Shown: positions 10,199 through 15,104 of the stretch, piece by piece
Layout: every line of letters begins with the position of its first letter
How positions within the stretch are numbered: the stretch's first letter is position 1
Source of the DNA: Candidatus Desulfolinea nitratireducens
GTDB lineage: Bacteria; Chloroflexota; Anaerolineae; Anaerolineales; Villigracilaceae
Length of the DNA: 64,000 nt
Reading direction: 5' to 3'
Assembly: GCA_014382535.1 (NCBI GenBank)
Contig: JACNJN010000119.1
Location: 1 to 64,000, forward strand
Notes under the pieces: model-generated
Databases searched by the model: none
Told to the model about the DNA's origin: nothing
What the model saw: the letters and a program-made list of their open reading frames with translations, nothing else
Program-made: the position numbers and the translations under genes

Positions 10199-10816
10199 TT
10201 AACGGACGACGATATCAACGTAGAAAAATTCGCCAAAATTGGCACCAGCTGAGTTGCGCATCCGCCAGTAACTTTGATATGAACCCGTTGTGAGCGGAGC
10301 GGTGAAGACAACGGTAACTTCCACAGTTTCTTCGGGGTTGATAATGGAGTTAAGGTTGCGGGCCTGGCCGCTCATTTCTTCGCCATAGCCATAGACTAAT
10401 TGGTAGCCTACGTCCCAGATGCAGGAGCCGGTATTTTTAATGCGCCAGATCTTCTCAAACCCTTGCCCAGGCGACATCTCGGTGCCATCCTGGACGCTGA
10501 CATCAGCAACCCAAATGGCATTATCACAGATTTGGGAAGTGGGCGAGGATTCAACAAGGATCGTGACAGGTGTTTCTGTGACAGAAATTGATGTAGGTAC
10601 TGATGTTGCGATTTCTGCGGCTTGGGTTGCTGTAGTCGTTGCTTTGGGTGTAGATGTATTCACTATTCCTGTTTGGGTCATTTCGGCTACCACTGTTTCT
10701 GCCGCAATGGTGTAAATCGCGTTAATATCAGGTGTAGGGGAGACAGGTACAGTTTCTCCGCAGGCGCTCAACAAAAATATCGTGAGGAAAGAAACAATGA
10801 TAAATTTTGCTTTCAT
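10199..10816 (-). CDS. Lipoprotein with NBR1-Ig-like domain
   Basis: Lipobox 'LLSAC', Thr/Pro-rich linker, 'FEKIWRIKNTGSCIWDVGY'. Confidence 0.85.
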   Translation of the reverse strand: MKAKFIIVSFLTIFLLSACGETVPVSPTPDINAIYTIAAETVVAEMTQTGIVNTSTPKATTTATQAAEIATSVPTSISVTETPVTILVESSPTSQICDNAIWVADVSVQDGTEMSPGQGFEKIWRIKNTGSCIWDVGYQLVYGYGEEMSGQARNLNSIINPEETVEVTVVFTAPLTTGSYQSYWRMRNSAGANFGEFFYVDIVVR

Positions 10817-10833
10817 AGCACCTCCTTTAGGCG

Positions 10834-11583
10834 TTAATTACCCTTAACGACAATATATACAGAGAGAATGCCGCCAAAATAAACGCCCCGGTCGTTTTGC
10901 AACCTAAAGTGAGTTTCATATTCTCCTACATCAAGAGGGGCGGTCAATTTAACGCCAATATCAATCACGCCACCTGGTTCGACGATTTTACTTTTTTTAC
11001 TAGATCCCCATGCCGGATTGGCAGCATCAAGGGGATTATTGTCATCAGATCTAGAGCTTTTGCTGCCAACAGGAACGAGCATATAACCTTCATCCCAGGT
11101 ACAAACGCCAGTATTGTAAACACGCCAAATTTTTTCGAAATTGTGACCAGCTTTTACAGTTGAGCCATCAGGATAGTTGACATCTACCGGATTGCCATAG
11201 GTCATTTCGTCGCAGATGGGGCCAGTCGGGGTGGTTAAAAGTGTCCCCGGGGTAAGCGTTGGAATAAGGGTTGGGGCGCCAGGGATGAGGGTTGGTGCGG
11301 TACCGATGGGAGTTGCTTCAAGATTGACCAAGGGAGTGACATTTAAATTAATTAACGTAGCTGTAGGGAGTGCTGTTGGGATTTCTGTTGCCGGCTCTGG
11401 TGTGGGAGAGAAGGAGATTGCGGTTTCTGTGAGTTGGGCAGCAACGGTTGCTGCGGCAGAAGTGAAGATGGCAACAGGATCAATTTCTGTGGGGGGCGGT
11501 TCTGCTGCTCCTCCACAGGCTGTTAAAGTGAGGATAAGTGTTATTAGCAGGACAATACGCCATTTTGTGTGTGTGTGTTTCAT
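10834..11583 (-). CDS. Lipoprotein with NBR1-Ig-like domain (tandem paralogue)
   Basis: Lipobox 'LTAC', 'NFEKIWRVYNTGVCTWDEGYMLV'. Confidence 0.85.
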   Translation of the reverse strand: MKHTHTKWRIVLLITLILTLTACGGAAEPPPTEIDPVAIFTSAAATVAAQLTETAISFSPTPEPATEIPTALPTATLINLNVTPLVNLEATPIGTAPTLIPGAPTLIPTLTPGTLLTTPTGPICDEMTYGNPVDVNYPDGSTVKAGHNFEKIWRVYNTGVCTWDEGYMLVPVGSKSSRSDDNNPLDAANPAWGSSKKSKIVEPGGVIDIGVKLTAPLDVGEYETHFRLQNDRGVYFGGILSVYIVVKGN

Positions 11584-12885: not shown

Positions 12886-13269
12886 TTATTTTGCCAGTAC
12901 CTTGATCTGTTTCGGGCGAGCGGACTCGACCTTGGGCAGGCTGAGGGAGAGAATCCCGTTTTTGATCTTGGCTTCAACTTTGTCGGGGTCGACCTCGCTG
13001 GGCAGGCGCAATGTGCGAATAAACTTGCCCTCAGGCAATTCGCGCAACAGATGCTCACCATCAGATGTTTGGTACTCACCTTCGATGCGGATGACGTTTT
13101 CAAGAATTTGAATATTTAAATCGTCGGCGCTCAGGCCGGGAACGGCAGTGGTCAGGACGAAATTATCATCTTCTTCGCGGACATCAACACGCAGGGTATA
13201 AGCTTCATTTTGGCCAGCCAAACGGCCCCTCATCATTCTGTGGTTGTAAGGGCGGGTATAGTAACTCAT
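12886..13269 (-). CDS. Hsp20/alpha-crystallin family small heat shock protein
   Basis: 'VDVREEDDNFVLTTAVPGLSADDLNIQILENVIRIEGEY...ILSLSLPKVESARPKQIKV'. Confidence 0.95.
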   Translation of the reverse strand: MSYYTRPYNHRMMRGRLAGQNEAYTLRVDVREEDDNFVLTTAVPGLSADDLNIQILENVIRIEGEYQTSDGEHLLRELPEGKFIRTLRLPSEVDPDKVEAKIKNGILSLSLPKVESARPKQIKVLAK

Positions 13270-13459
13270 TTTGATCTCCTTTTAGATTATCAATAAAATT
13301 TGAACTGTAGTAGATATAATATCCTGTGAGTGTTAGAAGAATGGCAACAAAAGATTTAAATTCTATAAGAACGGGATGACCAAATTCTTAATTGTTAGCT
13401 GAAGGAAAATAGAATGATAAAGTTTTATAGTTGGGGACCTATTTACATGCTTCAGTCGT

Positions 13460-13777
13460 CTACCTCTCAGTATTCCTTTTTCTACTCACGAAAGGAGATC
13501 TTATGAAACTGATCCATACTAATGCCCACGGGACTTTGCTTCTCATCTTGGTTCTTACGGCTTCCTCTGCCTCGGCTTCCAGCGCCTCGATTTCCTCGGG
13601 GGTAATGGCTGCCAAACCACCCTCAATGCGGGCCTGCGTGGTTTCCCAAGTGCGCAGTTCGGGGCCTACATCTACAGGCTTATAGTCGGGCAGATCTGAT
13701 GCGACTGAAACTGCCATAGGGACTAATGTCAATAGCAGGGCTAGAATACCAAATAAAGCAAATAACTTGCGGTTCAT
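13460..13777 (-). CDS. Small secreted protein, possibly the truncated N-terminus of a larger exported protein
   Basis: Clear signal peptide (MNRKLFALFGILALLLTLVPMAVSVAS) and AGGAGG SD; basic low-quality C-terminus suggests truncation or frameshift. Confidence 0.5.
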   Translation of the reverse strand: MNRKLFALFGILALLLTLVPMAVSVASDLPDYKPVDVGPELRTWETTQARIEGGLAAITPEEIEALEAEAEEAVRTKMRSKVPWALVWISFIRSPFVSRKRNTER

Positions 13778-13882
13778 TTGTTCCTCCTAAAAAGTTGGCA
13801 GTTCTTTTTGTTATATGCAATGATACTGAAAATCTATGACAATTAATAATCCTGAACGATCACCTCCTTCGTGAAGGTACGG

Positions 13883-13907
13883 CAAAAAAGCCTGCCAAGG
13901 GTGCAGG
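13883..13907 (-). terminator. Second rho-independent terminator in the riboswitch leader
   Basis: Minus strand CCTGC-accctTG-GCAGG-CTTTTTTG. Confidence 0.6.
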
Positions 13908-13952
13908 ATTTATAAAACAAATTGAAGAGAGCTTAGAAAGGGAATATTCAAT

Positions 13953-13988
13953 AAAAAAACCGAAGGGCTATAACGTTCTGGCCTTCGG
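13953..13988 (-). terminator. Terminator overlapping the aptamer 3' end (expression platform)
   Basis: Minus strand CCGAAGG-N15-CCTTCGG-TTTTTTT; the 5' arm is also the 3' end of the aptamer. Confidence 0.8.
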
Positions 13989-14071
13989 CGGTCTGGCGGT
14001 CTGCATGCTTTTCAATTGCGGATCCCATGACTTTGCGCCCCCATCTCGCGATGGGTTTACCTTTTCGTGGT
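13982..14071 (-). ncRNA. Probable cyclic-di-GMP-I (GEMM-I) riboswitch aptamer
   Basis: Minus strand CACGAAAAGGTAAACCCATC-GCGA-GATGGGGGCGCAAAGTCATGGGATCC...GCATGCAGACCGCCAGACCGCCGAAGG fits the GEMM-I pattern: GG(C/T)AAACC, GNRA-capped P2, (A/G)CGCAAAG, 3' GCC.G..(T/C)GCCGAA. Confidence 0.75.
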
Positions 14072-14281
14072 TGAATTAAAATAGAGTTCTATTAAATAGA
14101 TCACACATCTGGACCCATCATATCGTAAGAAAGGCTGTAAAAGTGGCTTCAAAAAAGCGTTAGTGTCTAGCCCTTGAGATATAAAAATTCAACGAGATGA
14201 TCAGATTTACAATTCATAAATTTATATTAGCATTTTTGCAGAGTGATTCCAAGTGTTTTGCACGAGGTATAATCCTGACTC

Positions 14282-14980
14282 ATGTCAAGGCGTTTAGTCC
14301 TCTCCACACTTTTTGTCGTCGCAATAGTTGGCGGCTATCTGACCTATCGGAGTATGCGCTCATCAGGTGCGCGTTCGGTGCAAGTCATGCGATGGTTCCG
14401 TGATTCTGATTCCCATGCTGACTGGGAAATCTTGCAAGGCACACGCTGTGGTGATGCCCCTTTTATCCTCCCCACAGATGGGATCATCGGCTATCTCTGG
14501 GATGATTCCTTTCGTCCCGGCCATCGGCATCAGGGGCTTGATATTTTCGGCGGAAAAGAACTCGGCGAAACGCCCGTGATTGCGGCTTACGAGGGTTATC
14601 TGAGACGTCTACCCGATTGGACATCTTCCGTTATCATGCGTGTACCCAGTGATCCCCTTGAACCAGGGCGTCAAATTTGGCTCTATTACACTCATATGGC
14701 AGATGCGGATGGAAATTCTTTTATTGATGATGCCTTTCCGCGCGGGACAAGTGAAGTTCTCATTCCCGCTGGGACACTGCTCGGTTATCAGGGAAATTAT
14801 TCGGGCGACCCCTTCAACCCGACGGGAATTCATCTGCATTTCTCCATTGTTCTGGATGACGGAAATGGCACCTTCCTGAATGAGCTGGAGATCAAGAATA
14901 CCCTTGACCCAACCCCTTATCTTGGGATGGCATTGAATGCAAAAGTTAATCAGGATGGGATTCCGACTTGCAATGAGTAA
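14282..14980 (+). CDS. M23-like peptidoglycan endopeptidase family protein
   Basis: 'PFRPGHRHQGLDIFGGKELGETPVIAAYEGYL' and 'GIHLHFSI' (HxxxD...HLHF). Confidence 0.8.
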   Translation: MSRRLVLSTLFVVAIVGGYLTYRSMRSSGARSVQVMRWFRDSDSHADWEILQGTRCGDAPFILPTDGIIGYLWDDSFRPGHRHQGLDIFGGKELGETPVIAAYEGYLRRLPDWTSSVIMRVPSDPLEPGRQIWLYYTHMADADGNSFIDDAFPRGTSEVLIPAGTLLGYQGNYSGDPFNPTGIHLHFSIVLDDGNGTFLNELEIKNTLDPTPYLGMALNAKVNQDGIPTCNE

Positions 14981-15000
14981 AGAGTTGGTAGAAGTAAAAT

Positions 15001-15088
15001 ATTAAACACGAAGGCCACGAAGAGGCACAAAGATAAAAACATGAGCTTGAGTTTTCCTTCGTGCAACTTAGGGATCTTGGTGTTTAAT
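15001..15088. repeat. Intergenic imperfect inverted repeat
   Basis: ATTAAACAC...GTGTTTAAT ends with internal CACGAAGGCCACGAAG / CCTTCGTG. Confidence 0.6.
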
Positions 15089-15104
15089 AAACGAGAGATA
15101 AACT

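What the first reader, a model, noticed from the sequence alone, without database searches (positions are those of the whole stretch)
13883..14071. Probable c-di-GMP-I riboswitch with tandem terminators controlling a truncated secreted protein
Minus-strand leader has the GEMM-I core (GGTAAACC, GNRA-capped P2, GCGCAAAG, GCC...CGCCGAA). Its 3' end CCGAAGG doubles as the 5' arm of a terminator (CCGAAGG...CCTTCGG-T7), so aptamer folding and termination compete: predicted ON switch. A second terminator follows at 13883-13907. The next gene (13460-13777) encodes a signal-peptide protein that seems truncated, so the switch may now be orphaned.
Basis: partly seen in the sequence, partly recalled or inferred. 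Interest (0 to 1): 0.7.

Follow-up and report, generated by a model that had tools for sequence, protein, structure and literature searches.

The report
Orphaned c-di-GMP riboswitch beside deleted protease
This is a genuine cyclic-di-GMP sensor RNA (c-di-GMP-I riboswitch) that, in sister genera, sits in front of a secreted metalloprotease gene; here that gene has lost most of its length, leaving the switch as a relic with probably nothing useful to control.

Summary
Confirmed. Window 13984-14071(-) is a c-di-GMP-I (GEMM-I, RF01051) aptamer: 47.5 bits, E=3.6e-6, gathering score 35. Its last six bases plus the next two (GCCGAAGG) form the 5' arm of a terminator (3' arm 13966-13959, U7), so ligand-bound aptamer and terminator exclude each other: an ON switch is predicted, not shown. 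Seven of nine aptamers at this locus share the overlap, against none of 34 other aptamers sampled. The "second terminator" (13891-13907) is weak and not conserved. The 105-aa ORF is the N-terminus of a ~700-aa secreted HExxH metalloprotease with an InhA-like MAM domain. In other genera of the family, the slot between the Hsp20 gene and a divergent M23-like gene holds intact GEMM-I-controlled peptidases; in other species of this genus neither aptamer nor peptidase was found there. The window keeps only the riboswitch, leader and ~75 codons: a deletion relic. Unexpected: all nine leaders, and the eight closest intact homologues, carry a strong Shine-Dalgarno site far upstream of the start codon, nearly always with no start codon behind it, resembling the mRNA-stabilising STAB-SD of cry3A. 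New member of a known kind; interest modest.

The parts
13984..14071 (-). c-di-GMP-I (GEMM-I) aptamer; P2 capped by a GCGA loop, no tetraloop receptor in P3; the positions corresponding to G20, A47 and C92 of Vc2 are kept
   Evidence: cmscan RF01051 47.5 bits E=3.6e-6; alignment with locus relatives. Assignment of ligand contacts is from knowledge of the Vc2 structure.
13953..13989 (-). Intrinsic terminator: 5' arm GCCGAAGG (13989-13982) = aptamer 3' end, P1 3' strand and the C92 equivalent; 3' arm 13966-13959 (closing G-U); U run 13959-13953
   Evidence: same overlap in G183 (two), G211 (two), G281 (two)
13884..13907 (-). Weak second terminator-like hairpin (CCUGC/GCAGG, then CU6); not conserved in relatives
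13858..13870 (-). Stand-alone extended Shine-Dalgarno site GAAGGAGGTGATC, about 80-93 nt upstream of the ATG, no start codon behind it
   Evidence: 9/9 locus leaders and 8/8 closest homologue leaders carry one; 0/22 distant homologues; 2/34 other aptamer leaders have an SD match and both have a start codon near it
13783..13788 (-). Ordinary Shine-Dalgarno AGGAGG for the truncated ORF (ATG 13777-13775)
   Evidence: sequence
13460..13777 (-). Truncated secreted metalloprotease gene, 105 aa; residues 1-75 homologous to the signal peptide and following N-terminal region of ~670-720-aa homologues, the rest is read-through of junction sequence
13374..13552 (.). Junction sequence between the broken peptidase gene and the conserved Hsp20 upstream region; deletion scar (extent approximate)
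12886..13269 (-). Hsp20 gene, left border of the peptidase slot
   Evidence: Pfam PF00011; synteny
14282..14980 (+). Divergent M23/LytM-like gene (by motif only; no Pfam hit), right border of the slot; found in 86 of 99 family genomes

Best explanation
A c-di-GMP-I riboswitch of the transcription-termination ON type. When c-di-GMP binds, it holds the aptamer's 3' strand (P1 and the ligand-pairing C), so GCCGAAGG cannot enter the terminator and RNA polymerase reads on. Without ligand the terminator forms. Its ancestral target was a secreted HExxH metalloprotease in the Hsp20-M23 slot. In this genome a deletion removed the protease from about codon 75 through to the Hsp20 upstream region, leaving an orphaned, mildly decayed switch with no useful output. 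Shown: aptamer identity, terminator overlap, truncation, synteny with intact loci. Inferred: ligand binding, ON polarity, loss of function.
For: RF01051 hit above the gathering score. Terminator 5' arm overlaps the aptamer 3' end in 7 of 9 aptamers of the same locus and in none of 34 other aptamers sampled. Intact riboswitch-peptidase units stand in the same slot beside the M23-like gene in G183, G211, G281 and, with other secreted peptidases, G308; in G211 and G281 the Hsp20 gene is the other border, as in the window. In the genus, G301, G289 and G303 have Hsp20 adjacent to the M23-like gene, and no aptamer or peptidase was found in the other members' loci. The rest of this peptidase is nowhere else in the genome. 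A c-di-GMP-II-like aptamer in the leader of homologue G168 supports c-di-GMP control of this protease. Lowest RF01051 score of the nine locus aptamers (47.5 vs 54.7-75.7), with a bulged A and a C.A mismatch in P3.
Against: In the nearest-neighbour model the terminator state is about 10 kcal/mol better than the aptamer state (-32.3 vs -22.7), so switching must rely on co-transcriptional kinetics and ligand/tertiary energy that the model omits. No convincing sigma-70 promoter upstream. The N-terminus resembles homologues of another family (G175, G084; 54-57%) more than G183 (33-35%), so lateral transfer into the slot is not excluded.
Confidence: 0.83

Rival explanations
1. The riboswitch is still functional and now drives the 105-aa secreted peptide or read-through into Hsp20, i.e. 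it has been re-purposed rather than orphaned.
For: Aptamer core, terminator, both SD sites, start codon and signal peptide are all intact; Hsp20 lies downstream on the same strand about 190 nt after the stop.
Against: Homology ends at about residue 75, before the catalytic domain, and the rest is unrelated sequence; lowest aptamer score of the locus, P3 defects, weak promoter; relatives without the element keep Hsp20 with its own short upstream region.
Confidence: 0.12
2. OFF switch: ligand-bound aptamer favours termination, as in the C. difficile class I switches.
For: All seven functional class I switches of C. difficile are OFF (PMC6366702); many other aptamers of this order have a separate downstream terminator, compatible with OFF control.
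Against: Here the terminator arm is the aptamer's own 3' strand (P1 side), so both cannot form together; no separate antiterminator is seen.
Confidence: 0.07
3. The truncation is an assembly or consensus error and the gene is intact in the living organism.
For: Fragmented assembly of 223 contigs.
Against: No other contig holds the missing part of this peptidase at 97.9% completeness; Hsp20 and M23-like flanks are in normal order; genus relatives lack the whole gene.
Confidence: 0.05

Closest known systems
c-di-GMP-I riboswitch (GEMM-I, RF01051), Vc2-type aptamers
   Same: Full-length covariance match; conserved GG[C/U]AAACC, CGCAAAG and GCCGAA cores; positions corresponding to G20/A47/C92 kept.
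   Different: P2 loop is GCGA and P3 has no tetraloop receptor, as in the other aptamers of this locus; the four other aptamers of this genome have GAAA with a receptor-like UCUAA...UAUGA or close variant.
Bc2 class I ON riboswitch of Bacillus thuringiensis (cap, collagen adhesion protein)
   Same: Class I aptamer promoting read-through of a terminator for an extracellular protein (review PMC6366702).
   Different: Target is a secreted protease remnant; polarity here only predicted.
zmpI/PPEP-1 class I riboswitch of Clostridioides difficile
   Same: Secreted zinc metalloprotease under a class I c-di-GMP riboswitch (PMC6366702).
   Different: That gene is negatively regulated by c-di-GMP and the protease is intact; here predicted ON and broken.
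STAB-SD of Bacillus thuringiensis cry3A
   Same: Strong Shine-Dalgarno site in the leader about 100 nt from the start that does not initiate translation (PMC4113751).
   Different: No stability test here; sits just downstream of a riboswitch terminator in many of the leaders.

Membership tests
c-di-GMP-I riboswitch (RF01051) | Covariance-model score above gathering (35 bits) | tested here: met
   47.5 bits, E=3.6e-6
c-di-GMP-I riboswitch (RF01051) | Ligand-contact positions G20, A47, C92 (Vc2 numbering) | tested here: met
   GG(U)AAACC, CGCAAAG and GCCGAA present; mapping to Vc2 is from knowledge, not from a structure fetched here
c-di-GMP-I riboswitch (RF01051) | GNRA loop on P2 docking on a tetraloop receptor in P3 | tested here: inconclusive
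   GNRA loop (GCGA) present; receptor absent, as in the relatives at this locus
c-di-GMP-I riboswitch (RF01051) | Binds c-di-GMP selectively | not testable with these tools
   needs in-line probing or SHAPE
Transcription-termination ON riboswitch | Terminator arm overlaps aptamer strand so the two states exclude each other | tested here: met
   overlap in 7 of 9 locus leaders
Transcription-termination ON riboswitch | Ligand increases read-through | not testable with these tools
   needs single-round transcription
Secreted metalloprotease with InhA-like MAM domain | HExxH zincin motif and InhA-like MAM domain | tested here: not met
   Window ORF ends before both; they are present in intact homologues (PF20773 in the four tested; HEYQH). 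The window ORF is an N-terminal remnant, not a working member.
STAB-SD | SD-like site in 5' UTR that binds the 16S rRNA 3' end without starting translation and stabilises mRNA | tested here: inconclusive
   Sequence, position and lack of a start codon fit; binding and stabilisation untested

The most novel reading that the evidence does not exclude
The locus family is a two-part leader: a c-di-GMP-I ON switch followed, past its terminator, by a conserved non-initiating extended Shine-Dalgarno site that captures a ribosome and stabilises (or shields from Rho) the read-through mRNA of exported proteases in this bacterial order. The window is a natural deletion mutant of this device.
Probability: 0.4. 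Interest if true: 0.55.

Novelty: new member of a known kind. Interest (0 to 1): 0.38.

Why it matters
It catches a riboswitch regulon member in the act of being lost: intact in sister genera, relic in one species, gone in its congeners. It also identifies a syntenic slot for c-di-GMP-controlled secreted proteases in this bacterial family (c-di-GMP-I in most, and a c-di-GMP-II-like aptamer in a homologue elsewhere in the order), and exposes a conserved non-initiating Shine-Dalgarno element in their leaders that can be tested directly.

Tried and rejected
(1) Mobile-element or transposon insertion of the cassette into an empty Hsp20-M23 site: first suggested by the empty site in G301 and G289, dropped when the same slot was found occupied by intact riboswitch-peptidase units in other genera. 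(2) c-di-GMP-I-GGC variant (RF03167): the relatives' hits to RF03167 arise from clan competition; they have A, not G, at the A47 position, and the window's own hit is RF01051. (3) The 10-nt direct repeat ATAATCCTGA (13846-13855, 14269-14278) as a target-site duplication: about what chance gives; not pursued. (4) uORF behind the stand-alone SD: no conserved start codon. (5) Genome-wide use of the stand-alone SD: RAAGGAGGTG occurs 23 times, equal to the 23 of the reversed-pattern control, so it is not a general feature. (6) A close-relative scan of genome contigs with the 105-aa ORF found nothing.

Full report
OBSERVATION. The only Rfam gathering-level hit in the 64-kb window is RF01051 (c-di-GMP-I) at 13984-14071 on the minus strand: full model, 47.5 bits against a gathering score of 35, E=3.6e-6. 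The genome (3.65 Mb, 223 contigs, 97.9% complete) has five such aptamers: a pair 201 nt apart on C191 (81.6 and 80.8 bits), C37 (69.1), C147 (66.4) and the window copy, which is the weakest.

EXPRESSION PLATFORM. The aptamer ends GCCGAA at 13984. GCCGAAGG (13989-13982) pairs with CCUUCGGU (13966-13959) at the head of a run of seven U; the hairpin folds at about -11 kcal/mol with z=-2.2. The 5' arm therefore contains the 3' strand of P1 (CC-A-CG at 14070-14066 with CG-AA-GG at 13987-13982) and the cytosine corresponding to C92 of Vc2, which pairs with the ligand (assignment from structural knowledge). The two states exclude each other, which predicts an ON switch. In the nearest-neighbour model the terminator state (-32.3) beats the aptamer state (-22.7 kcal/mol) and P1 is not populated without ligand. 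The model has no ligand or tertiary terms, so this shows only that the default is termination. Among 39 aptamers surveyed, an overlapping terminator was found automatically only in four of this locus; reading the nine leaders of the locus by eye gives seven of nine (window, G183 x2, G211 x2, G281 x2), with one U-A to C-G compensatory difference between ACUGCC/GGCAGU and ACCGCC/GGCGGU. The two G308 leaders have separate terminators. In G211's second leader the run of U after the stem is poor. The 30 order aptamers in the survey were the top-scoring ones, so the comparison is not an unbiased sample.

THE GENE. The 105-aa ORF has no Pfam match and no close paralogue in the genome, but its first 75 residues match the N-termini of 690-750-codon open frames in the order. 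These are secreted proteins with a HEYQH zincin motif and an InhA-like MAM domain, PF20773. The closest group (60-100% identity to the G175 protein) occurs in seven of 300 order genomes. The remainder of the protein is nowhere in this genome; the only other relative, on C122, is a distant 32% homologue without a riboswitch.

SYNTENY SHOWS A DELETION. In G211 (genus g10) the order is M23-like, GEMM-I-peptidase 1, GEMM-I-peptidase 2, a 150-aa ORF, Hsp20, lipoprotein. In G281 (g4) it is M23-like, GEMM-I-InhA, GEMM-I-InhA, Hsp20, lipoprotein. G183 (g2) has M23-like followed by two GEMM-I-peptidase units, and G308 (g116) has GEMM-I in front of an M28/PA-type secreted peptidase and of a second secreted protein. 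In the window's own genus, G301, G289 and G303 have the Hsp20 gene next to the M23-like gene, and no peptidase or aptamer was found beside either gene in the other species examined. Only the window keeps a riboswitch, leader and 75 codons between the same two flanks. I first took this for an insertion into an empty site; the occupied slots in four other genera turn it into a deletion relic. Vertical descent with repeated loss in the genus is simplest, but the N-terminus is closer to homologues of family f5 (54-57%) than to G183 (33-35%), so transfer into the slot cannot be excluded.

IS THE SWITCH DECAYING? Its RF01051 score is the lowest of the nine aptamers of the locus (47.5; others 54.7-75.7). 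Relative to its neighbours P3 has an extra bulged A and a C.A mismatch, the terminator stem is several base pairs shorter than in G211, and no promoter better than chance lies in the 90 nt upstream (7 of 12 matches, 268 of 300 shuffles as good; relatives 8-11 of 12). Each point is weak alone. The GCGA loop and missing tetraloop receptor are not decay: the locus aptamers share a non-GAAA GNRA loop and lack the receptor, while the four other aptamers of this genome have GAAA.

C-DI-GMP CONTROL OF THE PROTEASE. Besides the c-di-GMP-I aptamers, the leader of the G168 homologue holds a c-di-GMP-II-like aptamer (RF01786, 44.5 bits, below its gathering score of 53.5, E=2.9e-8 in a 1-kb search). If real, two unrelated aptamer classes converge on one protease, which argues that c-di-GMP control of it is functional.

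STAND-ALONE SHINE-DALGARNO. The eight closest intact homologues (L080-L087), with or without a riboswitch, carry an 8-12-nt exact match to the complement of the 16S 3' end (general bacterial sequence assumed) 83-229 nt upstream of the start codon; shuffled leaders reach this in 0-4% of cases, and 0 of 22 distant homologues have one. All nine GEMM-I leaders of the locus have one (7-12 nt; eight of nine with no start codon at initiation distance), against two of 34 other aptamer leaders, both with a start codon nearby. In the window it is GAAGGAGGTGATC at 13858-13870. The motif is not enriched genome-wide (23 vs 23 control). The nearest described element is STAB-SD of cry3A, where a bound 30S subunit blocks RNase J1 (PMC4113751). 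This is the least expected part of the work; its function is inferred.

COMPARISON AND VERDICT. The element is a new member of the c-di-GMP-I class, predicted ON like Bc2 of B. thuringiensis and unlike the OFF class I switches of C. difficile, where the secreted metalloprotease ZmpI is also a target (PMC6366702). A literature search for InhA with c-di-GMP riboswitches found no paper on this arrangement, within a partial library. The finding is real, well explained and of modest interest.

Noticed in passing
L182 about 1335-1594 (G300:C114:16776-17035); also G281:C29:16998-17258, G211:C69:11651-11903, G183:C22:45399-45658: Head-to-tail triple c-di-GMP-I aptamers whose model matches overlap by about 6-8 nt with no expression platform between them; a RuvB-like gene follows in G281 and a roadblock-like gene in G300 (names by eye). 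Triplets are known (PMC9481103), but this packing deserves a look.
   Followed up: partly
L086 1205-1309: Sub-threshold c-di-GMP-II aptamer (44.5 bits) upstream of an intact homologue of the truncated peptidase, i.e. a second riboswitch class in front of the same gene.
   Followed up: partly
L001 1300-1588 (G000:C191): Tandem c-di-GMP-I riboswitch pair, 201 nt apart, near a contig end, upstream of a 145-aa ORF of unknown function.
   Followed up: no
L003 1501-1594(-) (G000:C37:3407-3500): A c-di-GMP-I aptamer with no convincing gene downstream on its strand; it faces the 3' end of a membrane-protein gene, possibly a second orphan.
   Followed up: no
window 10199-11583 (-): Two adjacent lipoprotein-like genes each with an N_BRCA1_IG (PF16158) domain.
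   Followed up: no
window 14995-15091, with matches across the genus: A short sequence of about 90 bp just upstream of the SDR gene (query 2296-2392) matches many places in this and related genomes at 70-94% identity: an intergenic repeat family.
   Followed up: no
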